64,000 nt of DNA, taken from the IMG/VR virus record IMGVR_UViG_3300043446_005051, positions 25,427-89,426 of that record; one strand, 5' to 3'. The notes under the pieces are model-generated. The model ran no database searches, was not told the origin of the DNA, and saw only the letters and a list, made by a program, of their open reading frames with translations. The DNA comes from a virus. The position numbers and the translations under genes were made by a program. The first letter of the stretch is position 1. Every line of letters starts with the position of its first letter. Positions 6,952-38,764 of the stretch are shown piece after piece.

Positions 6952-6975
6952 ACATAATTTGCTCTAAAAGAGCAA

Positions 6976-8514: not shown

Positions 8515-9222
8515 TTAAGAGACGCTAGTCTTCATATTACGAAGGTTGAAGAACATTGAACACTGAGATGGGTCCAGTGTTCCATCGAGAAGGTTTTGAA
8601 TGACCATCAGAGTCATACTTGCTGCAAAGAAGTTTGCTGAAATAAGTTGAGGACGACTCGGTGCATTTAATGCACAACTTCCCGAATGTGGAATACTATC
8701 TTGAGGCTGGTCAATATTTGGATATGCAATAGTTGGATTCATACCAACATTCACATTATCAATTCGGCCCCACCAGAGAGTTTGACCTCGAACTTCTTCA
8801 AGGCCATCGCTATTACCTGGAGTAATATAAAAGAAGTCCTTTCCTTGACGAGTATTATTGATTGCATCAATAATCGCTTTACGTGTTGCGTCATTATCTA
8901 CCGAACAGATAATGACAGGACGCTCTGAATTACGAATCATCGGAATGAAAGTAGATGCAGTGATGAACTGGTCTTTGCATTCAACATCAGTTAGTCCCTG
9001 ATAAGAGCAGAAGTCCTTCATTGCTCGTGCTTTATTCATATTGATTTGAGATTCACCCACAATTTGTCGAGTGAGATTTGAACTCTCGAACGAATCACCA
9101 TCAATAAAAGTTACCTTTGCTCCTTGAGTGTTCGGATGATATGCAACGAGTCGAGCAAGTGGAGCAGCGAGATGCCCACCAGTTCCACCCACGCCAATCA
9201 CAAAGAAATCAGAGAAAAACAT
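8515..9222 (-). CDS. ThiF/E1-like ubiquitin-activating adenylyltransferase
   Basis: ThiF-fold protein of 235 aa. The Rossmann nucleotide loop is GVGGTGG (residues 10-16). The hallmark DGDSFESSNLTRQ that follows (metal and ATP contacts, plus the NLxRQ arginine that senses phosphate) is intact, as is a later CSVDNDATRKAI segment of the same fold. A cysteine in SGSCALNAPSRPQL is the best candidate for a thioester or active-site Cys. E1 proteins adenylate the C-terminal Gly of a ubiquitin-like partner. The start at 9222 is chosen for its AGGAGG site. Its length and lack of zinc CxxC pairs fit the ThiF protein of PRTRC cassettes better than MoeB. The neighbours encode Ubl, E2-like and JAB proteins. 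Confidence 0.85.
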   Translation of the reverse strand: MFFSDFFVIGVGGTGGHLAAPLARLVAYHPNTQGAKVTFIDGDSFESSNLTRQIVGESQINMNKARAMKDFCSYQGLTDVECKDQFITASTFIPMIRNSERPVIICSVDNDATRKAIIDAINNTRQGKDFFYITPGNSDGLEEVRGQTLWWGRIDNVNVGMNPTIAYPNIDQPQDSIPHSGSCALNAPSRPQLISANFFAASMTLMVIQNLLDGTLDPSQCSMFFNLRNMKTSVS

Positions 9223-9270
9223 AAACCTCCTGTTGGAACGAATCAATGGTAGCAGACGAAGACCGTCAAA

Positions 9271-9305
9271 AACAAAAAGGTGGACAGCTCAAAAACCGTC
9301 CACCT
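9271..9305 (-). terminator. terminator of the E2-like gene
   Basis: AGGTGGACGG/CTGTCCACCT stem (one G-U pair) with loop TTTTTGAG, followed on the minus strand by TTTTTGTTTTT. A canonical intrinsic terminator and the clearest member of the GGACAGT family. Confidence 0.75.
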
Positions 9306-9315
9306 ACATACAGAA

Positions 9316-10284
9316 TTAAATTTGACCAACTAGATAGTTCTCATCCCTAGATACAAACCATTTTCTATTTACTGCATCTGGAACTGTTTCATAGCCATAA
9401 TAAGTACTTCCATTTTTTTCAATTTGAACCTCCTTTGCAGGAATAATCATAATATGTGGAGAATCCTCAAGAGGTTTATATCCAGCTGAAAGAAGAGTAA
9501 AAAATGCTGGAACATCATATTCAGCGTGTACTATGATTATACTATCAATATCTTCTCCATCACATAGAAAATGTTCAGATTCTAGAAGAGAGAATTCATC
9601 ACTATTTTTTAGATACCTTAGAGTGTCACAATTGGTTTCAAACGTACCTAGAGGTAGAAGGTCATTATTAAATTCACTATTAAAGTAGGTTTGAACTACA
9701 CTTCTGAGATTAGTTGGAGCATTGTTGGACCCCCAGCAAATTCCACCTACTTCATATGCATCCCCAAATACATTGGAAGCCATAAGCAATCGAGTTGCAT
9801 AAATTTTATTGTCCAGAGTATATCCTGAACGAAGATATGCTTTATCTGAATCTAAAGACAGATAAGTTCTAAATCTCCCATTTCTAAATGAAAGATTAAC
9901 TTGAAATACCATATCTGCCACATTCATATGAATTGATACATCTTCGGCATTATTCCCCTCTGGGCATTCTTGACCTGTATAACCTTCTTCATACACCCAA
10001 CAATGATTGTCCTCCCCCCCACTCACATCTGTCCAATCAATATCATCATCTTCATCTTTTCGATTGGAAAGGAATGAATAACAATTTCGATAGCATCCAT
10101 CACAAAATTCATTGTAAAATCCATCTGAATCCATTTCAATATCTTGATGAATATCTTTATAGTTGTCTGGCATCCAAGCATTGATTTTTAGAGAATCTTC
10201 TACTTTATAACTAAAGAATTTTGCTCCTTTTGGTAGAAGATGAACATTTACTTTGGGGGGAACAGTTTGAAAAATTACAGACAT
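9316..10284 (-). CDS. E2-like protein of a ubiquitin-like system (PRTRC protein B-like)
   Basis: About 322 aa from the chosen start. The region EVGGICWGSNNAPTNLRS followed by QTYFNSEFNNDL resembles the conserved core of PRTRC protein B / prokaryotic E2-like families (a G-x-C-x-G strand-loop with the key Cys, then P, then an F-x-S-x-F segment). The Cys of GGICWG is the candidate thioester residue. A Cys-rich acidic stretch (CDGCYRNC, DNHCWVYEE, QECPEG) in the N-terminal third could bind metal and is not typical of plain E2s. The longer frame (to 10359) runs into the upstream terminator, and an ATG at 10314 sits inside a -10-like motif, so I take 10284; there is no clear ribosome-binding site. 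The E2 assignment is by pattern and context and needs profile confirmation. Confidence 0.6.
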   Translation of the reverse strand: MSVIFQTVPPKVNVHLLPKGAKFFSYKVEDSLKINAWMPDNYKDIHQDIEMDSDGFYNEFCDGCYRNCYSFLSNRKDEDDDIDWTDVSGGEDNHCWVYEEGYTGQECPEGNNAEDVSIHMNVADMVFQVNLSFRNGRFRTYLSLDSDKAYLRSGYTLDNKIYATRLLMASNVFGDAYEVGGICWGSNNAPTNLRSVVQTYFNSEFNNDLLPLGTFETNCDTLRYLKNSDEFSLLESEHFLCDGEDIDSIIIVHAEYDVPAFFTLLSAGYKPLEDSPHIMIIPAKEVQIEKNGSTYYGYETVPDAVNRKWFVSRDENYLVGQI

Positions 10285-10312
10285 TTTGGATGAATTCTGT
10301 GTAACTTCAGTC

Positions 10313-10318
10313 ATTGTA
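10313..10318 (-). promoter_or_regulatory. extended -10 type promoter motif
   Basis: TACAAT within GCTACAATGACTGAAGT on the minus strand, 29 bases before the E2-like start. Its near-identical twin at 6750-6755 lies in a non-coding leader, which supports a promoter role. The -35 is weak. Confidence 0.45.
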
Positions 10319-10339
10319 GCAGGAAGGGGCGGTGTGGAT

Positions 10340-10370
10340 AAAAAAAGGGGACACCTCAAAAAGTGTCCCC
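10340..10370 (-). terminator. terminator of the JAB gene
   Basis: GGGGACAC/GTGTCCCC perfect 8-bp stem, loop TTTTTGAG, then seven T on the minus strand. Lies 14 bases after the JAB stop codon. Confidence 0.8.
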
Positions 10371-10383
10371 CGATATTACTATA

Positions 10384-11466
10384 TCAACTAGTAGCAAAAG
10401 CAGATTCATCAATCTCTTTAGCCGCACTAGTTAGTACATCATAGAGATGGAAGATTTTGTTCAGGTCTTCTGAATTCTGATTAATATAGTCATTAATCAG
10501 GTCTTCAATCTCCCATAGTTTAATAGTTTTATTCCCTTCTACATTCTCGGTATTTAGAGTGCCATTCTCGTTAAAAAAGAATGGGTCATCCATATATTGA
10601 TTGTATCCATCATAATCATTATACTTATAGGTTGCATATTTCTCTAGCCACTTATCATACGAATCTGAATCCCTATGGGATTTACCTCCCTTATACTTTA
10701 CAGGAGAATATTTAATTACAGTTGTAGGAGTACTATAATCCACATATTTTAGAACATCTGGATGAAATGTAACTTCTGAAATTGGAGTGGCATCAATAAG
10801 TTCATCATATTTCAGAAGAAAGCGACGACCATTTCCAACTACGGAAGCTGCAATTGTATATACATTTTTATTTACGTCAATACTTCCTACAACTAGATGA
10901 ATACCAGGGTCTCCTAGCTCATACTTATCGTCAATTCCTGAGAAGAAAGATGGCATAGTATTATGCGAATGACTAGACCCAACAGGAATCCACCCAGAAG
11001 GAGGATAAGATTCAACAACCTCTCCAGTTTCAATGTCAATGGATTCATCAAAGCTATCAATTCGTACAGCGGCTCCAGATACCTTTTGTTTGGGTACAAG
11101 AATCCTATATTTTGATGAATCTTCATCCGAACGAAGAATCCGAATAGAAACTTCAACTTCGTTACTTACTTTATTTACAAAGTGAAAACATAGTTTCACC
11201 CAACGAGACCAAAGTTCTGCTGGAATTTTATGAATATCAGAATTTAGTTCAAAATGTTCAAGATGCTCTTTTGTAATTTCTACATTTGCATCTGGGTCTG
11301 GACAAGAACGAATATACTTACCCCAAGGCCCTTGATACACCTCAAAACATCCATCCAAGGAAGTGCGAAGAATTGAAGGAGGAGTATTCACTAGTTCTTC
11401 TTCAATCTTGATTTCATTAATTTCAAGAGTATCTTCTTCGACCATAGTTTGAATAGTTTCTGACAT
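10384..11466 (-). CDS. JAB/JAMM metallopeptidase (deubiquitinase-like, PRTRC protein A-like)
   Basis: A 360-aa protein with the complete JAMM zinc motif HSHNTMPSFFSGID (H166, H168, S176, D179: H-x-H-x7-S-x2-D), followed by GIHLVVGSID as in JAB-domain proteins of PRTRC cassettes. The upstream acidic residue of the site is probably one of the Glu in SNEVEVSIRI (about residue 103-105). JAB peptidases cleave after the C-terminal Gly of ubiquitin-like proteins, maturing or removing them. The N-terminal 100 and C-terminal 140 residues (KGGKSHRDSDSYDKWLEKY and beyond) are extra and unassigned. The start at 11466 (MSETIQTMVEE) is chosen because the longer frame begins inside the Ubl terminator. The gene lies between Ubl and E2-like genes. 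Confidence 0.85.
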   Translation of the reverse strand: MSETIQTMVEEDTLEINEIKIEEELVNTPPSILRTSLDGCFEVYQGPWGKYIRSCPDPDANVEITKEHLEHFELNSDIHKIPAELWSRWVKLCFHFVNKVSNEVEVSIRILRSDEDSSKYRILVPKQKVSGAAVRIDSFDESIDIETGEVVESYPPSGWIPVGSSHSHNTMPSFFSGIDDKYELGDPGIHLVVGSIDVNKNVYTIAASVVGNGRRFLLKYDELIDATPISEVTFHPDVLKYVDYSTPTTVIKYSPVKYKGGKSHRDSDSYDKWLEKYATYKYNDYDGYNQYMDDPFFFNENGTLNTENVEGNKTIKLWEIEDLINDYINQNSEDLNKIFHLYDVLTSAAKEIDESAFATS

Positions 11467-11512
11467 AATAAAAAATAATAAAAGAACTTGGGTATAGAAA
11501 ATAATTTGTATG

Positions 11513-11547
11513 AAAAAACCCTCAAAGGTTATGTAAACCAATGAGGG
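11513..11547 (-). terminator. terminator of the Ubl gene
   Basis: CCCTCATTGGTT/AACCTTTGAGGG stem (internal mismatch) with loop TACAT, followed by six T on the minus strand, 22 bases after the Ubl stop. It separates the small Ubl gene from the JAB gene, so read-through would set the Ubl:JAB ratio. Confidence 0.75.
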
Positions 11548-11568
11548 ATTATCTTAGTTAGTTAGGAG

Positions 11569-11829
11569 TCAGCCCTTTTGCTCGCTGTTAGTTGCAGCAC
11601 GGTAAGATTCACCTGCACGCACAACCTGAGTAGAAGGAACAGCTTCGCCGTTGAGAACGTAACGATTGATACGAGTTACATCGCCCAGTGAGCTAGCATA
11701 CTCAGCGTAAAGCTGGGAAACGGTCTTACCAGTGAATTGAGCAGAGTTTAGTGAAACACTCTCTTCGTTGAAGTAGAGAGTAACAGGGCTCTCGGTGTCA
11801 GCTTGACGGATTTGGGAGAAGAAAGACAT
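11569..11829 (-). CDS. ubiquitin-like protein with C-terminal glycine (PRTRC protein C-like)
   Basis: 86 aa. The predicted order is strand (VTLYFNEESVSL), helix (TVSQLYAEYASSLGD), strand (RYVLNGEAV), strand (GESYRAATNS), which is the beta-grasp layout of PRTRC protein C and other small Ubls. NGEAVPSTQVVRAGE corresponds to the conserved 'dn G.....ll..Gd' turn. The protein ends EQKG, so the final glycine is exposed without processing, ready for adenylation by the E1-like enzyme at 8515. GC-richer and codon-optimised compared with its neighbours, with its own terminator: consistent with high expression. Confidence 0.75.
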   Translation of the reverse strand: MSFFSQIRQADTESPVTLYFNEESVSLNSAQFTGKTVSQLYAEYASSLGDVTRINRYVLNGEAVPSTQVVRAGESYRAATNSEQKG

Positions 11830-12084
11830 AGTTGGTACTCAGAATAAAGGACAAAGGGGGATGAAAGAAGTTTGTGACCTCTCTCACCGACTCACATACC
11901 GTAGCAGAGGACCGCTCGGAATGGGAGGTGAGGTGGACAGTTCAGAAACCGTCCGATTGGTGATGAAGAAAAGAGGTTTCAGCTCTCTTCCCTCTCTCAC
12001 CGACTCCATCAGATTAGCTCATCTGGCCCGTCTCTGGAGTGAACAGTGGACACTTCAAAAAGTGGCATTCGGGTAATTAAAAAC
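11830..12084. other. gene-free promoter region with duplicated leader
   Basis: No convincing reading frame. It holds two GGACAGT-type hairpins (11933-11953 and 12046-12067) and two copies of cctctctcaccgactc (about 11879 and 11990). On the minus strand each copy follows a GCTAnnnT-type -10-like sequence. The first pair is placed to drive the Ubl gene; the second may be a duplicated promoter or the remnant of a lost gene. Confidence 0.5.
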
Positions 12085-15484: not shown

Positions 15485-15573
15485 CATAATAGACCTCCAG
15501 GTTTGTGCATCGTTGAGAGGCATAGGAGGGGTGGGACTTAAACGACGTTTGGACCGCCGTTGCCCATAAAAGT

Positions 15574-16037: not shown

Positions 16038-16481
16038 TCAGGTTAAATAAGACCTTAACTTATAAACAAAGACACCGTGAGCTTCCATTAAATCTTGAAC
16101 AAGATTTGCAGTGGCGTAACTTCTTTGATTTTCAGCTTCTTCAGAAATATCTTTTAACAATTCAACAATCTTTTGATTATCACTCAACAATTGTTGAACC
16201 ATTCCTTTTGCATCAATAACTTGATTACCATTCGCTGGGCCATCAATAGATGAGACTTCAACCATTCGAGTCATTGTTGACACAGGTCGAATATTTAAAT
16301 ATCGCATATGTTCTGAAATTCTATCAACCTCCTCAAACATTGCTTCATATTGAGCACCAAATAATTCATGAAGTTGTGGAAAATCAGTTCCAGTTACATT
16401 CCAATGATAGTTCCAAGTTTTTTGAAATAAAACAAATAAAGATGCTTGAGTATCAGAAAGTAATTTGTATAGTTTTTCCAT
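16038..16481 (-). CDS. dps: Dps-like ferritin
   Basis: 147 aa, normal Dps length. The four ferroxidase ligands are present with exactly the spacing of E. coli Dps (51/63/78/82): H26 in NYHWNVTG, H38 in FPQLHELF, D53 and E57 in EEVDRISEHM. Dps dodecamers oxidise and store iron and shield DNA from oxidative damage. A perfect late promoter directly upstream implies late expression, so it may sequester iron, protect replicated phage DNA or be carried in the virion. Role in the phage is inference. Confidence 0.87.
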   Translation of the reverse strand: MEKLYKLLSDTQASLFVLFQKTWNYHWNVTGTDFPQLHELFGAQYEAMFEEVDRISEHMRYLNIRPVSTMTRMVEVSSIDGPANGNQVIDAKGMVQQLLSDNQKIVELLKDISEEAENQRSYATANLVQDLMEAHGVFVYKLRSYLT

Positions 16482-17339: not shown

Positions 17340-17543
17340 TTATTTAGAACTCACAAAAGTATTAATTTTATTTGCTAGTACTTCAATCTTTTCATAAGAA
17401 GGAAATTCTGGATATGCCATTTTCACTGTATTATGTGGATTCTCATTCCACAAAGAAACAATAGAATACTCTGCTTGATATTCAGACTCCGCAAGAGCCT
17501 GAGCTTGCTCAAAAATTTTAAATCGAAGTTCGTAAGGTGTCAT
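17340..17543 (-). CDS. conserved small cyanophage protein (67 aa)
   Basis: Starts MTPYELRFKIFEQAQALAES, then SLWNENPHNTVKMAYPEFPS. I prefer this start because 'MTPYELRF.IF.QA' is the usual opening of this cyanophage hypothetical; an in-frame ATG 51 bases upstream gives an unlikely N-terminus. Function unknown. Confidence 0.65.
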   Translation of the reverse strand: MTPYELRFKIFEQAQALAESEYQAEYSIVSLWNENPHNTVKMAYPEFPSYEKIEVLANKINTFVSSK

Positions 17544-17594
17544 AATTTTATTCCTGTGTGTATGATGTGTGAAATTTGCTAATACGATTAGCAA

Positions 17595-17668
17595 TACCCG
17601 AGGTCGGATTCGAACCGACGACTGCTCGATTTTAAGTCGAGAACCTCATTCCGCTGGGTCACTCGGGC
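17595..17668 (-). tRNA. tRNA-Leu (anticodon UAA), short variable loop
   Basis: Acceptor GCCCGAG/CTCGGGT (G-U at the end), anticodon stem CTCGA/TCGAG around CTTAAAA, T arm GTCGG-TTCGAAT-CCGAC. The anticodon UAA predicts Leu (UUA), but the variable region is only about 5 bases (CAGTC), whereas normal tRNA-Leu has a long arm. See findings. Confidence 0.75.
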
Positions 17669-18331
17669 AAAAAGGGCTTTAGTGCGTCTATTCCCTGGTG
17701 CATCTGTGTTATTCCAAGCTGGAACATAATCGCACATCTCGTCGTATCCGAGTTCAGATGCTTCCCCACTCATTTAATCTAATGAGCAAATCAAATAATT
17801 GAATTCACCTTCTATGCTTGCGACCCTGATTTGATCAGAATCTAGCCTCGTACATCTTCTAACTTTCTATACCGTGAATATAGTCTGTCAGAGGTCTTAC
17901 GACACAATCACCCATTTTCACAGATGACGTTAGGGGCTTCGGCTTCATCAATTGCAGTTTGCCTAATGTACCACCCGAAGGAACGATACACGGTGCTTTC
18001 ACGGCGATTCCTTAACCGAAGAATCGTTTACCGTCCTATTTCTGGGATAACTACTGTAATTCACCAGTCATATAAGAAGCATTCACTATTGGCGTTGTGC
18101 TCACTCTCATATGCTACTTACGGTATCTGCTTCCGCCAAGAAGAATTAACCGATAGAAGATTGGTGGAGTTGGCCGAGGCAATCACCTCTAGTCTCCATC
18201 TTCCTTTCCCTTATACATCTTACGATGCCTGACCCTCATAGATTAGAAGTCAGTTTTCTAAGACCTTTTCAATCTTAGGGGAGGGACAATCCCGATAAGA
18301 CAACCATAGAGTAAAACTCTTGAGTTGTCAA
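17669..18331 (-). ncRNA. candidate large structured non-coding RNA (GOLLD/ROOL-like class)
   Basis: 663 bases without a credible gene, at about 45 percent G+C against one third around it, lying inside a tRNA operon. Nearly its whole length folds into short perfect hairpins on the minus strand. Examples: CTAAGA/TCTTAG, CTGAC/GTCAG, CATC-GTAA-GATG (GNRA loop), GGTG/CACC, CGGT-CTTC/GAAG-ACCG, ACGG-CGATTC/GAATCG-CCGT, GATGA/TCATC, CTGAT/ATCAG, CTCATT/AATGAG, CTCG/CGAG and TTCCA/TGGAA. Large ornate RNAs of the GOLLD and ROOL classes are known from phages and often lie next to tRNA genes. Membership in one of these classes is inference. Orientation is taken from the surrounding minus-strand tRNAs and the promoter at 18557-18585. 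Confidence 0.6.
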
Positions 18332-18403
18332 TGGTTCTGGAAAGACTTGAACTTTCTTCAGCCCCTTATAAGGAGGCGGCCTTAACCCATAGGCGACAGA
18401 ACC
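18332..18403 (-). tRNA. tRNA-Ile (anticodon UAU), second copy
   Basis: Acceptor GGTTCTG/CAGAACC perfect, anticodon stem GCCTC/GGGGC around CTTATAA, T arm AAAG-TTCAAGT-CTTT. Same anticodon as the tRNA at 6881 but an otherwise different sequence, so not a recent duplication. Confidence 0.83.
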
Positions 18404-18442
18404 AATAAGACAATCATAAGACCTAAATCTCAGATTGTCAAG

Positions 18443-18524
18443 TCCTCGTTTTCAGACTCGAACTGAAACTCCTTTCGGAAGTGGTTTTTGAGACCACTGC
18501 GGCTACCGATTACGCCAAACGAGG
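18443..18524 (-). tRNA. tRNA-Leu (anticodon CAA)
   Basis: Class II tRNA: acceptor CCTCGTT/AACGAGG perfect, anticodon stem GTGGT/ACCAC around CTCAAAA, long variable arm TCC-GAAA-GGA, T arm TTCAG-TTCGAGT-CTGAA. Reads UUG. Confidence 0.9.
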
Positions 18525-18556
18525 TATTAAGTGAACGTGGCCTCAACCACCTTCAT

Positions 18557-18585
18557 AGATTACCACTCACTCAGATGGAAGTCAA
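18557..18585 (-). promoter_or_regulatory. sigma70-type promoter of the tRNA/structured RNA operon
   Basis: Minus strand TTGACT (18580-18585), 17-bp spacer ending TGG, TAATCT (18557-18562), 33 bases before tRNA-Leu(CAA). Same layout as at 7281 and 20771. Confidence 0.6.
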
Positions 18586-18595
18586 GAGATGTGTG

Positions 18596-18611
18596 CCAGT
18601 TGAAAAACTGG
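18596..18611 (-). repeat. dispersed hairpin (GTGCCAGT type)
   Basis: CCAGTT/AACTGG-type perfect stem with a four-base loop, between the 18622 stop codon and the tRNA promoter. Confidence 0.45.
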
Positions 18612-18621
18612 AACCTTAATA

Positions 18622-18939
18622 TCAGTCTCTTCTCCTCCAACCATCATCGTTATCCCGATGAAAGAAATCAGCAATGTCATCAGGTGAATCAAAATGAGTT
18701 CGGTGATTAGATGGGTCGGGGTCTCCTAAATCCAAAGCATTTAAAAACCCATCTAAACTATCTTCTGCCATACTTGGATTATCAGATAATCTTCTTGCTT
18801 GTCGCAACATTGTAGCAGCAGAGGGATTCGCCTTTGAGAGTTTTTCGGCCCATATCATATCTTCTAATGAGACTTCGTTGTGTGATGATATATTTTGGCA
18901 GATTTTTTCCAAACGAAGTCTATATGCAGTTGATAACAT
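18622..18939 (-). CDS. conserved cyanophage protein (105 aa)
   Basis: Starts MLSTAYRLRLEKICQNISSH, followed by SLEDMIWAEKLSKANPSAAT and then DLGDPDPSNHRTHFDSPDDI. This is a well-conserved cyanophage hypothetical with a helical N-half and the 'LGDPDPSNHRT' signature. A CTAAATAA sequence (late-promoter-like) lies about 20 bases upstream. Function unknown. Confidence 0.7.
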   Translation of the reverse strand: MLSTAYRLRLEKICQNISSHNEVSLEDMIWAEKLSKANPSAATMLRQARRLSDNPSMAEDSLDGFLNALDLGDPDPSNHRTHFDSPDDIADFFHRDNDDGWRRRD

Positions 18940-20629: not shown

Positions 20630-20656
20630 GTAGACAACACTATATATGTTGTCAAA

Positions 20657-34081: not shown

Positions 34082-35254
34082 TTAATTTTCGTATGTAATC
34101 GCTAAATTATGAGCTCCGCCGCAAGAAATATCTTTCCAATTAGTTTTTGTACTTATTTGAGTAAATATAGTCGTACCTCCAGTTCCCACTAATGATGTCA
34201 ATTGACGACTTCCATTGGAACCAGTTCCCCATAAAGTTCCATCTGTTTTAATTGCTAATGTATAGTTGCTTGAATTGCTGGAGTTTACCCTTACTCTTTT
34301 CCAATTATTAGATGACCCTACTTGAATAAATTCAGTAGTTACCCCCACTGATGGTCCTAAGCCTAGTTGACCATCAGTGTTTGACCCTCTTGCCCACAAG
34401 GTTCCGTCTGTCTTAACTGCCATCGTATAGTCTATACAACTTATTTGTTTCCAATTTGTTTCATTCCCAATTTGTACTGGACTTGTGGAAATTGAATTTG
34501 CAAAAATGTCACCTTCCCTAGCCAGATTACCCCATCTATATAAACTTCCATCCGTTTTAATAGCATATGCATAACTAATACCAGGCTCTACCGTTTTCCA
34601 ATCATTAGATACTCCAATCTGTGTAAATATAGATGTTGTGTCACTACCTGGTATATTACGCGAGCCTGTTATCCACAATGTCCCGTCCTTTTTAATTGCT
34701 ATTGTCGTTCTGAAACCAGTTTTAGCTTCTCTCCACTCACTACTTAACCCAACTTGAGTTGGTTTATTTGTAGAAGCTATGCCCACCAATCCTAATTGTG
34801 AGAAACTATTATTTCCCCACACCCAAAGAGTTCCATCATATTTAATTGCTGCTGCATGGTCTGGAGTATCATTTGTAAAATCTGATGAATAATAACTTAT
34901 TGTTTTCCAATTTATATTATTATCAATTTTAGTTGGAGTTGATATTGCTGAGCCAGCATAACCTAATCCCAATTGTCCTAAGCTGTTAGCTCCCCACACC
35001 CATAAAGTGCCATCTGACTTTATGGTCATTGAACCTCTGGCTGAAGTTTCAACTGCTTTCCAATTAATTCCAATTCCAACATTAGTGTTTATAATATTAA
35101 AATTAGTATTGGAATTTATACCATTTCCAAGAACTCCATTGGATGCATTTCCCCATACATATAATCCACCTTCTTGAAAATATTCAGATGGTACGAAAAC
35201 ATCATCAAAGTTATATACTACTCCATTTTCGGTGAAGTTATAAAATGTTGGCAT
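34082..35254 (-). CDS. RCC1-repeat beta-propeller protein (1 of 3)
   Basis: 390 aa made of about seven blade repeats of roughly 50 residues with the signature 'AIKTDGTLW.WG.N..GQLG.G......PTQIG...NWK'. Examples: IKSDGTLWVWGANSLGQLGL, IKYDGTLWVWGNNSFSQLGL and VKTDGTLWARGSNTDGQLGL. The N-terminus (MPTFYNFTENGVVYNFDDVF) is unique and probably attaches it to the tail. RCC1 propellers are protein-interaction scaffolds; a phage copy in the fibre region is most simply an adhesin or distal tail decoration. Confidence 0.78.
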   Translation of the reverse strand: MPTFYNFTENGVVYNFDDVFVPSEYFQEGGLYVWGNASNGVLGNGINSNTNFNIINTNVGIGINWKAVETSARGSMTIKSDGTLWVWGANSLGQLGLGYAGSAISTPTKIDNNINWKTISYYSSDFTNDTPDHAAAIKYDGTLWVWGNNSFSQLGLVGIASTNKPTQVGLSSEWREAKTGFRTTIAIKKDGTLWITGSRNIPGSDTTSIFTQIGVSNDWKTVEPGISYAYAIKTDGSLYRWGNLAREGDIFANSISTSPVQIGNETNWKQISCIDYTMAVKTDGTLWARGSNTDGQLGLGPSVGVTTEFIQVGSSNNWKRVRVNSSNSSNYTLAIKTDGTLWGTGSNGSRQLTSLVGTGGTTIFTQISTKTNWKDISCGGAHNLAITYEN

Positions 35255-35259
35255 TTCTC

Positions 35260-35622
35260 TTAAGGTTCAATATAAACTACAGGTGCATTCATCTCTTTAC
35301 TCCAATTCTCCAACCAACTTTTAACAGATGAATTCATCTTTGAATTATTTATTGAAATTGCTTTAAGAAATTGTACATCATTATTTCTTTCAACCGATAC
35401 TAGAACATTACATTTGTCTGGTCTCATTTCTTCAGGTAATAGCTTTTGACTCCAAGCACATTGATAATTTACACATACATTAGGACGAACCTTGTGTATT
35501 TTACATCCATTACACCCTTTAAATTTACAAGATTGTCCATTTCCAAATTCCCATCCGTAAGAACTTCCAATTAGCCAAGTACAACATGCTGTACAGTCGC
35601 CACAAGACCTAAAATAATTCAT
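35260..35622 (-). CDS. YkgJ-type cysteine-cluster protein
   Basis: 120 aa with the YkgJ family pattern: CGDCTACCTW near the N-terminus, CKFKGCNGCKIHKVRP, then PNVCVNYQCAWS. Eight or more cysteines could bind zinc or an iron-sulfur cluster. Family members are poorly understood; some appear beside protein-modifying enzymes. It separates two RCC1 genes in the fibre cluster, so it may modify or help mature them (inference). Confidence 0.72.
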   Translation of the reverse strand: MNYFRSCGDCTACCTWLIGSSYGWEFGNGQSCKFKGCNGCKIHKVRPNVCVNYQCAWSQKLLPEEMRPDKCNVLVSVERNNDVQFLKAISINNSKMNSSVKSWLENWSKEMNAPVVYIEP

Positions 35623-35628
35623 AATATA

Positions 35629-36828
35629 TTAAATAAAATCTAAAGAAAGAATTCCTACACTATGTCCCTCTCCCGGACTTATTTGCTTCCAATTTTTATT
35701 TGCTCCTATCTGAACTGGAGACGGTTGACTAGTGTTATTTCCTATACCAAGTTGTCCGTTAATATTGTAACCCCACCCCCATATAGTGCCATCAGTTTTA
35801 ATTGCCATAGTATAATAGTTTCCACATTCTATATTTTTCCAATTTGATGAAATTCCAACTTTAGTTGGAGTAGTTTTAGTTGAATTATCACCAACTCCAA
35901 GCTGACCAAAATTATTTCTACCCCAAGCCCATAATGAACCATCTGTTTTGATAGCAATTGTGTGTTCTTTTCCTGTACTTATTTTATACCAATCGCTAGT
36001 TAAATTTCCAATTTGAGTTGGGGTACCTACAGTGGCTGTGTTACCCCTTCCTAGTTGATAAAAATTATTAAGACCCCATCCCCATAAAGTTCCATCCGCT
36101 TTTATTGCAATGGAATATAAGTCCCCACAAGAAATTGATTTCCAATCAAAGTTTATTAAATCTATTTGCCTAGGGCTATTGGTACTTGCGTAACCAGTTA
36201 TACCTAGGGCACTAGATTGATTATTTCCCCACCCCCATAAAGACCCATCAGTTTTAATTGCTAAGGTATGACTATTTCCAGCTCCAACTAACCTCCAATT
36301 TGAAGAAATTCCAACCTGAGTTGGAGAAATTTTATCAGTATTATTAGATATTCCGAGTTGGCCATTAGTATTCCTACCCCAAGACCATAATGTACCATCA
36401 GTTTTTATGGCAAATGATGAGTCTGAATATGTTGAAATCTGTAACCAATTTGAAGCGATACCCACTTGTATTGGAGTTGATTGAATTAAACTAGTATTAG
36501 TAGTGTTTATGCCTAGCTTTCCATATGAGTTTATACCCCAAGTCCATAAAGTTCCATCTTTTTTAATCGCCAAATTATGGCTGTTTGAAGAGCCAACTAT
36601 TTTCCAAGTATACCCACTATTAACTTGAGTTGGAGTATTTGTAGCTGCTAATCCTACAACTCCTAACTGCCCTTGTGTATTACTACCCCAAGACCATAAT
36701 TGAGGAGTCACTCCTAATTGAGGTAATAAATCTGGATAAACGGAAATTAGATAATCTTTAGTTATTAATTTAGTACCTAAATCAATTCCACCACTATCTA
36801 TAAAATTTGTTTTTGGATTGTATACCAT
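35629..36828 (-). CDS. RCC1-repeat beta-propeller protein (2 of 3)
   Basis: 399 aa, about seven regular repeats: IKKDGTLWTWGINSYGKLGI, IKTDGTLWSWGRNTNGQLGI, IKADGTLWGWGLNNFYQLGR, IKTDGSLWAWGRNNFGQLGV and so on. The N-terminal 45 residues (IDLGTKLITKDYLISVYPDL) resemble the short head of other phage minor tail proteins, with a 'YLI..Y' segment also found in copy 3. The most regular of the three propellers. Confidence 0.8.
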   Translation of the reverse strand: MVYNPKTNFIDSGGIDLGTKLITKDYLISVYPDLLPQLGVTPQLWSWGSNTQGQLGVVGLAATNTPTQVNSGYTWKIVGSSNSHNLAIKKDGTLWTWGINSYGKLGINTTNTSLIQSTPIQVGIASNWLQISTYSDSSFAIKTDGTLWSWGRNTNGQLGISNNTDKISPTQVGISSNWRLVGAGNSHTLAIKTDGSLWGWGNNQSSALGITGYASTNSPRQIDLINFDWKSISCGDLYSIAIKADGTLWGWGLNNFYQLGRGNTATVGTPTQIGNLTSDWYKISTGKEHTIAIKTDGSLWAWGRNNFGQLGVGDNSTKTTPTKVGISSNWKNIECGNYYTMAIKTDGTIWGWGYNINGQLGIGNNTSQPSPVQIGANKNWKQISPGEGHSVGILSLDFI

Positions 36829-36834
36829 TTATCT

Positions 36835-37488
36835 TCAAACTATTTCTTCTTGAGGTTTAAGATTTATATTATATACTTCATCTATAGTTAAACATGAATC
36901 AATTTCTTGATGTTTTGAGTGTTCCCAATCAAAAACGCTTTGAACATAATTATCAACTTCTGATATTACATATTGTAACTCTTGACTTGTGATTTCCAAC
37001 CAGGTATTTCTAAACTTGAAATTATGAAGACCAGGTGAAGCTGATAACTTAGATGCTAGTAATTGTCGCTCATCTCGATTTGTAGATATTTCTACTTGGG
37101 AACCGTTAATAGTTACCTCAATAATTGTACTCTCTTTCTGTTTTCTTATTAAAGTAGCATCTTTCTTTTTTTCTAATTTTACTTCCTCTAGTGTTTTTGC
37201 AATTAAAGGATATGTAAATAAAACTTTAATTGGAATACCATTTTGTCGTTCTATAGCCCAAGTAAAATCACCAATATTATAATACCTAGAATCAAATGGC
37301 TCTGTAATTTTTTCTATTGGTAATAAATGGGTTAATCCATCTGAAAAATGGATAGGCATATCATTATAACTCTGAGGTTCAACCACATCTGAAAGTTCTA
37401 AATCTTCTAATTCTGAATTTATCATTCTCATATTATAAGAGAATGGACCGAGAATAAGTTGATTATTATGTATTAATGCTATTTCCAT
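36835..37488 (-). CDS. DUF4376-like tail fibre protein (217 aa)
   Basis: N-terminal half contains the proline/aspartate-rich 'EPFDSRYYNIGDFTWAIERQ' linker region typical of phage tail proteins. The C-terminal 110 residues match the DUF4376 pattern: charged helix (LEEVKLEKKKDATLIRKQKE), VTINGSQVEISTNRDERQLL, FRNTWLEITSQELQYVISEV. DUF4376 is a short module at the end of tail fibres and may bind another fibre subunit. Preceded by a late promoter at 37500. Confidence 0.62.
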   Translation of the reverse strand: MEIALIHNNQLILGPFSYNMRMINSELEDLELSDVVEPQSYNDMPIHFSDGLTHLLPIEKITEPFDSRYYNIGDFTWAIERQNGIPIKVLFTYPLIAKTLEEVKLEKKKDATLIRKQKESTIIEVTINGSQVEISTNRDERQLLASKLSASPGLHNFKFRNTWLEITSQELQYVISEVDNYVQSVFDWEHSKHQEIDSCLTIDEVYNINLKPQEEIV

Positions 37489-37499
37489 ATTTTTTTAAG

Positions 37500-37507
37500 T
37501 ATTTATA
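37500..37507 (-). promoter_or_regulatory. T4-type late promoter
   Basis: TATAAATA on the minus strand, 12 bases before the DUF4376-like gene and just after the stop codon of the third RCC1 gene. Confidence 0.55.
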
Positions 37508-38764
37508 TTAAATATTTGGTGAAACGCCTAATGTGAGCCCAGCTGTAATAGAAACTCGGTTCTCTACATATTTCCAATTAGATGAACCTTTTGTTATGTT
37601 GGTAAACTCTTGAAATTCTTCATTGGTATCTGTTGAAGTTAATTGAAAATCTTCATTATTTCCACTTGCCCATAAAGACCCATCAGTTTTTATGGCAAAT
37701 GTATTACTATGAGAACAATCAACGAATTTCCAATCTACCCCAGAACCAACCCTCGTTGGAACCACAGCAGAAGATATTCCTACAATTCCAAGTTGAGATC
37801 TTGAATTATCTCCCCAAGTCCATAAACTTCCATCTTTTTTAATTGCAGCACTATGAGTCCTTCCACTTGAACACAGTTTCCATTGGTCGGAGGTACCTAT
37901 TTGAGTTGGAATATATCTATCAGTGTATGGGTCTTCTACTCCCAGTCCAAGTTGTCCTATTCCAATAGGGTCACCAAGAACTTGGCCCTGATCAGTAACT
38001 GTAATTCCGGTATTATTTCCCCATGTCCATAGAGTTCCATCTTCTTTAATTGCAGTTACAACATGAACTCCAGTACTTACAGTCTTCCATCCTCTATTCG
38101 TCTGGCCGACTGCCACATAAACTTCAGTAGGAGATGTGACAATTCTATTCACATTTGTGTCATTTATACCTAACCTTCCATATGAATTTCTTCCCCAAGT
38201 CCATAAACTTCCATCTATTTTAATAGCGGCATTAAATGCACCGGAGGGACTATTAATTTTCCAATCTGAACCAACTCCTACTTTAGTGAGAGTTGTAATG
38301 CCAGATGTTGATGTATACCCCAGCCCCAATTGAGCAGAGTCATTTCTTCCACAAGTCCACAAAGTACCATCATCTCTAATTACAGTGGTATGATATCCTC
38401 CAGATGATAACTTAACCCAATAAGAACCAATTCCCACTTGAGTTGGTGTATTTCTATTTGAATAATCCTTCGTTCCGAGTTGACCATGTGAGTTATCCCC
38501 CCAGGTCCACAAACTTCCATCTGTTTTAATAGCGGTAACAAAATCATTTGAAACTGAAATTTTCTTCCATTGATTGGAATCAACTGATACTAAAGTTGGA
38601 GTATTTAATGTTAAATTGGAGTCGGCGTTTCCAATGCCCAGTTGACCATCTGTATTCCTACCCCAAGTCAACACTTGACTTCCAACATAATCATCGACCA
38701 ATTGATACTCAGTTACATAATATTTTTCCAGATCTCCTTCTGGAGAAAAAAATTGATTAGACAT
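37508..38764 (-). CDS. RCC1-repeat beta-propeller protein (3 of 3)
   Basis: 418 aa. Repeats include IKTDGSLWTWGDNSHGQLGT, IRDDGTLWTCGRNDSAQLGL, IKEDGTLWTWGNNTGITVTD (with an insertion) and IKKDGSLWTWGDNSRSQLGI. The head MSNQFFSPEGDLEKYYVTEY, followed by QLVDDYVGSQ, is the phage-specific part. Overlaps the S74 fibre gene upstream by 8 bases, so it is coupled to fibre expression. Confidence 0.8.
   Translation of the reverse strand: MSNQFFSPEGDLEKYYVTEYQLVDDYVGSQVLTWGRNTDGQLGIGNADSNLTLNTPTLVSVDSNQWKKISVSNDFVTAIKTDGSLWTWGDNSHGQLGTKDYSNRNTPTQVGIGSYWVKLSSGGYHTTVIRDDGTLWTCGRNDSAQLGLGYTSTSGITTLTKVGVGSDWKINSPSGAFNAAIKIDGSLWTWGRNSYGRLGINDTNVNRIVTSPTEVYVAVGQTNRGWKTVSTGVHVVTAIKEDGTLWTWGNNTGITVTDQGQVLGDPIGIGQLGLGVEDPYTDRYIPTQIGTSDQWKLCSSGRTHSAAIKKDGSLWTWGDNSRSQLGIVGISSAVVPTRVGSGVDWKFVDCSHSNTFAIKTDGSLWASGNNEDFQLTSTDTNEEFQEFTNITKGSSNWKYVENRVSITAGLTLGVSPNI

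What the first reader, a model, noticed from the sequence alone, without database searches (positions are those of the whole stretch)
17669..18331. Large structured RNA embedded in the tRNA operon
A 663-base block has no gene, markedly higher G+C than its surroundings and at least eleven small perfect hairpins, some nested and one with a GNRA loop. It is flanked by tRNA-Leu and tRNA-Ile and shares one promoter (18557-18585) with them. Size, ornate folding and tRNA adjacency fit the GOLLD and ROOL classes reported in phages, or an undescribed class.
Basis: partly seen in the sequence, partly recalled or inferred. Interest (0 to 1): 0.87.

Follow-up and report, generated by a model that had tools for sequence, protein, structure and literature searches.

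The report
New large phage RNA among tRNAs
A virus of cyanobacteria carries, between two of its tRNA genes, a roughly 630-letter RNA that makes no protein but folds into about thirty conserved helices; relatives occur in one cultured phage and two environmental viruses, it matches no catalogued RNA family, and it joins the small set of giant phage RNAs whose job is still unknown.

Summary
Minus strand 18296-17670 encodes a noncoding RNA of about 627 nt, after a spacer hairpin and directly before tRNA-Leu. I found three relatives: cultured Synechococcus phage S-CRM01 (unannotated gap between tRNA-Trp and tRNA-Asn; 76% identity) and two environmental viruses (87-88%). The four share one fold of about 173 pairs in 32 helices; 46 pairs show changes on both sides, 98% of cells stay paired, and consensus folding energy lies 11 SD beyond column-shuffled controls. 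Hairpin loops are near-invariant while their stems covary. An invariant 6-bp loop-loop match suggests a kissing interaction. No frame is coding. No Rfam family matches credibly; GOLLD and ROOL models fail, and ROOL passes in a known positive. So it is not a detectable GOLLD or ROOL but an apparently undescribed class of the same general kind: large, ornate, phage-encoded, tRNA-linked. Three of four copies sit exactly between tRNAs, so tRNA-processing enzymes probably release it. Likeliest role, inferred only: a stable structural RNA particle made during infection, working like GOLLD/ROOL. The claimed promoter is not supported. Four members only; expression and assembly untested.

The parts
17670..18296 (-). 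conserved core of the large noncoding RNA (about 627 nt; 5' end inferred, 3' end set by tRNA-Leu)
   Evidence: conserved in S-CRM01, L118, L139; RNAalifold 173 pairs, 46 with compensatory changes
18297..18331 (-). spacer hairpin (UUGACAAC...GUUGUC) between tRNA-Ile and the RNA core; similar hairpins follow other tRNAs; also promoter-like
   Evidence: z -4.2; spacers of the same type at 18405-18441, 20630-20655 and in L139
18118..18295 (-). 5' domain of the RNA (helices H2-H11), used for covariance model R1
18134..18139 (-). loop UUGGCG of helix H11, one side of the proposed kissing loop
   Evidence: invariant in four sequences; 0 of 200 column shuffles give so good a loop-loop match
18089..18094 (-). 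loop CGCCAA of helix H12, other side of the proposed kissing loop
   Evidence: invariant in S-CRM01 although neighbouring loop bases change
18005..18030 (-). variable hairpin or linker inside helix H15, no conserved sequence
   Evidence: 23-29 nt, different in each homologue
17797..17953 (-). central multi-branch domain (H19-H27) with two conserved GNRA loops (GAAA at 17919-17916; GUAA at 17900-17897); covariance model R2
   Evidence: helix H21: 7 of 11 pairs covary beneath an invariant GAAA loop
17700..17761 (-). 3' domain (H29-H31) with invariant stem CUCG/CGAG closing a GAWACGA loop and a strongly covarying hairpin at 17729-17709
17672..17698 (-). 3' terminal stem-loop (H32) with a conserved loop containing UAGACG and CACUAAA, abutting tRNA-Leu
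   Evidence: three covarying pairs
18331..18404 (-). upstream tRNA-Ile (anticodon TAT)
17594..17669 (-). downstream tRNA-Leu (TAA); RNase P cleavage at its 5' end would free the RNA 3' end (inferred)
18442..18524 (-). tRNA-Leu (CAA), further upstream in the cluster

Best explanation
This is the gene of a large, ornately folded, noncoding RNA of a T4-like cyanophage. It is transcribed as part of a tRNA operon, and its ends are made by tRNA-type processing: RNase P at the 5' end of the following tRNA, and cutting or trimming at the spacer hairpin after the preceding tRNA. The released RNA of about 630 nt folds into some thirty helices with docking elements (GNRA loops, an invariant 6-bp kissing pair). 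Most likely it acts as a structural RNA particle during infection, possibly self-assembled from several copies, as GOLLD and ROOL do, perhaps sheltering or organising tRNAs, ribosomes or another ligand. Shown: homology, conserved fold, noncoding nature, exact tRNA junctions, absence from Rfam. Inferred: co-transcription, processing, abundance, assembly, function. My confidence is about 0.98 for a conserved structured RNA, about 0.9 for a class outside Rfam, about 0.85 for expression with the tRNAs and about 0.4 for a self-assembling particle.
For: Three homologues: S-CRM01 131056-131715, L118, L139. 46 of 173 pairs with changes on both sides and 98.1% of cells paired; 0 of 500 shuffles reach this, and sliding partners by 1-3 columns drops it to 0-5 pairs. 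Consensus energy z -11.2 and 44 covarying pairs versus 6.8 in 100 column shuffles. Loops near-invariant while stems covary. Kissing pair UUGGCG x CGCCAA: 0 of 200 shuffles. Exact tRNA-RNA-tRNA junctions with three different tRNA pairs: Ile/Leu, Trp/Asn, Val/Met. Spacer hairpins follow tRNAs across the cluster. Noncoding. Outside the RNA and small tRNA matches, flanking DNA is dissimilar between window and S-CRM01. GOLLD and ROOL likewise lie near phage tRNA islands, assemble through kissing loops and A-minor contacts, and ROOL env-120 is 659 nt (PMC12286853).
Against: No transcript data. Only four members, so single helices with invariant pairs (e.g. H8, H14, H18, H30) lack covariation support and intermolecular contacts cannot be told from intramolecular ones. 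L118 is not between two tRNAs: it lies between a methyltransferase gene and an HNH gene, 0.8 kb before tRNA-Met. No detected sequence or covariance-model similarity to GOLLD/ROOL, so a shared mode of action is analogy. Promoter-like hexamers at 18331-18303 leave open a separate promoter.
Confidence: 0.55

Rival explanations
1. The RNA acts as a decoy, sponge or RNA-protein scaffold: it binds a host or phage protein (for example a tRNA-cleaving defence enzyme, a ribosomal protein or a maturation factor), rather than assembling with itself.
For: Invariant loops (GAAAA, AAUCUAYG, GNRA, GAWACGA) could be protein sites. It is encoded with tRNAs; the same genome carries an Rfam abiF RNA beside tRNA-Arg, a family named for abortive-infection genes. 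OLE RNA is a known ~600-nt RNA that works with proteins (papers listed).
Against: No conserved protein gene was seen next to all four copies. The conserved kissing pair and architecture fit an RNA-RNA role equally well.
Confidence: 0.3
2. It is a ribozyme or mobile intron-like element inserted between tRNA genes and spread by neighbouring HNH endonucleases.
For: Different tRNA neighbours in each genome and HNH-like ORFs beside two copies. A GOLLD copy in a mycobacterial tRNA cluster also comes with an HNH gene (PMC6582537).
Against: No group I, group II or other ribozyme family in Rfam matches. Both flanking tRNAs are intact, so nothing is interrupted, and no common insertion junction is seen.
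Confidence: 0.1
3. It is a very divergent GOLLD or ROOL that the Rfam models cannot see.
For: Same size range (ROOL env-120 is 659 nt), tRNA adjacency, kissing loops, variable linker-like hairpin.
Against: No ROOL match at E<=10 in any of the four genomes while the ROOL model scores 130 bits in L. salivarius pMP118. GOLLD gave only a 4-bit, 11-position chance match elsewhere. Local alignment to the pMP118 ROOL is no better than shuffles.
Confidence: 0.08
4. The conserved block is not an independent RNA but a long structured spacer or processing signal of the tRNA precursor.
For: Hairpins occur in most spacers of this tRNA cluster.
Against: About 630 nt with some 30 helices, most of them covarying, and invariant loops far exceeds the 25-40-nt spacers; it is conserved in L118, where it is not flanked by tRNAs.
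Confidence: 0.05

Closest known systems
ROOL RNA (Rfam RF03087)
   Same: about 660 nt, encoded by phages and prophages near tRNA islands, complex conserved fold, kissing loops, a variable linker; function unknown (PMC12286853)
   Different: no covariance-model match at E<=10 in any of the four genomes, no sequence similarity beyond shuffles; carriers here are T4-like cyanophages
GOLLD RNA (Rfam RF02032)
   Same: giant phage RNA beside or within tRNA clusters, sometimes with an HNH gene (PMC12286853, PMC6582537)
   Different: no meaningful match to the model; members often exceed 800 nt, this is about 630 nt; conservation here is spread along the whole length
Unclassified long noncoding RNAs of Staphylococcus phage K and Vibrio phage ICP1
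   Same: long, abundant phage noncoding RNAs that their authors likened to GOLLD/ROOL; those of phage K also lie near tRNAs (PMC9241854, PMC7567579)
   Different: no sequence comparison was made here; hosts unrelated; ICP1 has no tRNAs
OLE RNA
   Same: about 600 nt, ornate, conserved, forms a dimer (PMC12286853)
   Different: found mostly in Bacillota, works with proteins; no Rfam match here

Membership tests
ROOL (RF03087) | covariance-model score at or above 99.1 bits | tested here: not met
   no match at E<=10 in window genome, S-CRM01, L118 or L139 records; positive control pMP118 130 bits
ROOL (RF03087) | phage-encoded, near tRNA genes, about 600-660 nt | tested here: met
   (three of four copies directly between tRNAs)
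ROOL (RF03087) | assembles into an octameric cage | not testable with these tools
   needs cryo-EM or mass photometry
GOLLD (RF02032) | covariance-model score at or above 150 bits (conserved 3' region) | tested here: not met
   only a 4-bit, 11-position chance match elsewhere; no hit. No GOLLD positive control was run
GOLLD (RF02032) | 14-mer cage; induced during lytic growth | not testable with these tools
   needs experiment
Group I/II introns and other catalogued ribozymes | match to an Rfam model | tested here: not met
   no such match at E<=10 in 17500-18700 or E<=0.5 in the homologue loci
Conserved structured noncoding RNA | covariation of predicted pairs beyond chance in homologues | tested here: met
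Protein-coding gene (frameshifted) | open frame or codon-position bias conserved in homologues | tested here: not met

The most novel reading that the evidence does not exclude
A third, unrelated class of phage RNA that self-assembles into a cage or other RNA-only particle, evolved independently of GOLLD and ROOL in T4-like cyanophages and matured by the tRNA-processing machinery.
Probability: 0.35. Interest if true: 0.92.

Novelty: new variant of a known kind. Interest (0 to 1): 0.8.

Why it matters
Only a few RNA classes of this size and complexity are known in bacteria and their phages, and the phage ones, GOLLD and ROOL, have solved structures but no function. A new class, apparently unrelated in sequence, in the same setting (phage, tRNA cluster, 600-700 nt, kissing loops) would show that phages have evolved or kept such RNAs more than once, which points to a shared need during infection. 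It also occurs in a cultured phage (S-CRM01), so expression, assembly and deletion can be tested directly. In practice it is a missing Rfam family, sitting unannotated in a reference genome.

Tried and rejected
Rfam at gathering and permissive thresholds: only tRNAs and chance hits in the block. GOLLD/ROOL models on whole records: negative. Frameshifted gene: rejected. Extra homologues: eight pattern or protein scans of viral contigs and one of genome contigs gave only L085 (=S-CRM01), L118 and L139; every other hit was a chance short match. Covariance models of the 5' and central domains over whole records of 16 other cyanophages, including tRNA-rich S-CREM1, S-PM2, S-CREM2 and S-H34, found none; the best stray hit was 8.6 bits. 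gp48 as bait in viral contigs found no relative. S-T4, Sf-FR1 and S-CREM1 blastn hits were tRNA only. A GOLLD positive control in phage Bxz1 could not be run because the record is not held. Literature searches found no description of this RNA in the open-access library.

Full report
What was checked. The finding claims a 663-base gene-free, GC-rich, hairpin-rich block between tRNA-Leu and tRNA-Ile. ARAGORN places tRNA-Leu(TAA) at 17594-17669 and tRNA-Ile(TAT) at 18331-18404, both on the minus strand, so the block is 17670-18330. Its GC is 0.43 against a mean of 0.34 for windows of that size (top 2.7%). Folded alone the minus strand is more stable than dinucleotide shuffles (z -2.9), the plus strand barely so (z -1.3).

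Homologues. Sensitive blastn against 50,697 phage records found one relative, Synechococcus phage S-CRM01 (76% over 570 bases), in an unannotated gap exactly between tRNA-Trp and tRNA-Asn. Pattern scans of IMG/VR added L118 (87%) and L139 (88%; again exactly between two tRNAs, Val and Met). A profile search of all fetched loci and covariance-model searches over 16 other cyanophage records found no more. The window genome itself is a T4-like cyanophage fragment: its gp48 is about 30-36% identical to those of Synechococcus phages. In 9 kb around the block, the RNA and one 56-base match at a tRNA are the only DNA similar to a 49-kb stretch of S-CRM01, so the RNA is either strongly constrained or horizontally moved.

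Structure. The four-way alignment (A3) gives an RNAalifold consensus of 173 pairs, 46 of which show changes on both sides. Counted independently, 98.1% of cells are standard pairs; 0 of 500 shuffles reach the observed values on any of five measures, and sliding partners by 1-3 columns leaves 0-5 covarying pairs. In a harsher null, shuffling columns within conservation classes and refolding, the consensus energy is 11 SD below the mean and 44 covarying pairs compare with 6.8 +/- 2.6; the antisense reading is weaker. After correcting one misaligned hairpin near the 3' end by hand, 177 pairs remain, 52 covarying. Hairpin loops are near-invariant (GAAAA, AAUCUAYG, GNRA twice, GAWACGA) above stems that vary by compensation: helix H21 has 7 of 11 pairs covarying under an invariant GAAA. 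Two neighbouring hairpin loops, UUGGCG (18139-18134) and CGCCAA (18094-18089), are perfectly complementary in all four; no loop-loop match as good arose in 200 shuffles (the column set had been relaxed by hand at the H11 and H14 closing pairs, a mild bias). The only stretch without sequence conservation is a 23-29-nt hairpin at about 18030-18005.

Coding. Every frame of all four sequences carries 5-20 stops, substitutions spread over codon positions, and the 102-aa antisense ORF is frameshifted or stopped in relatives.

Borders and expression. The core begins near 18296. The preceding ~34 nt form a hairpin beginning UUGACAA right after tRNA-Ile; near-copies follow tRNA-Leu(CAA) and tRNA-Lys here and tRNA-Val in L139, and other tRNAs here are also followed by hairpins. 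They look like operon spacers. The same bases resemble sigma-70 promoters at 18441-18413 and 18331-18303, but the copy after tRNA-Lys is not among the promoter-like sites with 10 or more matches and S-CRM01 lacks the hexamers, so I favour spacer hairpins without excluding promoters. The promoter proposed at 18557-18585 was not found. At the 3' end only 5 nt (window) to about 10 nt (S-CRM01, L139) separate the terminal stem from the next tRNA, so RNase P cleavage of that tRNA would define the RNA 3' end (inference). L118 shows the RNA can stand outside a tRNA pair: methyltransferase, RNA, HNH-like ORF, tRNA-Met.

What it is. No Rfam family other than tRNA matches credibly in the block, nor in the homologue loci apart from weak tRNA-like or YrlA-like hits elsewhere. 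The GOLLD and ROOL models, run on all four genomes, find nothing meaningful, whereas ROOL scores 130 bits in L. salivarius pMP118. Membership in ROOL and GOLLD is therefore not met, the GOLLD test lacking its own positive control. In kind, however, it resembles them: phage-encoded, tRNA-linked, 600-700 nt, complex fold, kissing loops, one variable insert (PMC12286853). GOLLD in mycobacteria also lies in a tRNA cluster with an HNH gene (PMC6582537), and unclassified long RNAs of phages K and ICP1 have been likened to these classes. I found no paper in the open-access library describing this RNA, which does not exclude one elsewhere.

How it most likely works. Shown: homology, fold, noncoding nature, tRNA junctions. 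Inferred: it is co-transcribed with the tRNAs, released by tRNA processing, accumulates as a stable RNA and acts through its shape. I put about 40% on a self-assembling RNA particle in the manner of GOLLD/ROOL, about 30% on a protein-binding scaffold or decoy, 10% on a ribozyme or mobile element, the rest elsewhere. Distinguishing these needs the wet experiments listed.

Limits. Four members; metagenome contigs could not be searched; exact-pattern scans miss divergent copies; no transcript data.

Noticed in passing
window 15493-15529 (-): An abiF RNA (Rfam RF03085, 50.2 bits), six bases upstream of tRNA-Arg; the family is named for abortive-infection genes, so a phage copy could be an RNA decoy or antitoxin (speculation).
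   Followed up: no
window 8515-11829 (-): Possible ubiquitin-like conjugation operon: ThiF/E1-like protein (PF00899, E 3e-11), JAB-like protein (PF14464, E 3e-4, just under cut-off) and an 86-aa ORF that may be the ubiquitin-like protein (no Pfam hit).
   Followed up: partly
window 11830-12084 (-): Second GC-rich (0.486) intergenic block, MFE z -3.0, no phage blastn match, with two exact copies of GTCGGTGAGAGAGG (0.17 expected); the 11-mer GGTGAGAGAGG also lies upstream of the large RNA in L118.
   Followed up: partly
L118 3475-3547 and L139 1831-1903: A tRNA-like element conserved between two homologue genomes (78%, 73 nt); in L118 it has a tRNA-Asn-like anticodon arm but an unusual T loop, and ARAGORN misses it.
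   Followed up: partly
window 6952-6975, 18405-18441, 20630-20655 and other tRNA spacers: Most tRNAs of this phage are followed at once by a spacer hairpin, several of the form UUGACAA...UUGUC, that also mimics a sigma-70 -35 box.
   Followed up: partly
window 16038-16481 (-); L118 98-541: Ferritin/Dps-like protein (PF00210, E 4e-22), about 84% DNA identity, kept within about 2.5 kb of the RNA in both genomes.
   Followed up: no
window 34082-38764 (-): Three neighbouring ORFs rich in RCC1-like WGxN repeats, next to large tail-type proteins (seen by eye, not tested).
   Followed up: no
L002 4140-4254 (S-CRM01): Sub-threshold YrlA (Y RNA-like) match, 35.9 bits, E 8e-5, in the same tRNA cluster of S-CRM01.
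   Followed up: no
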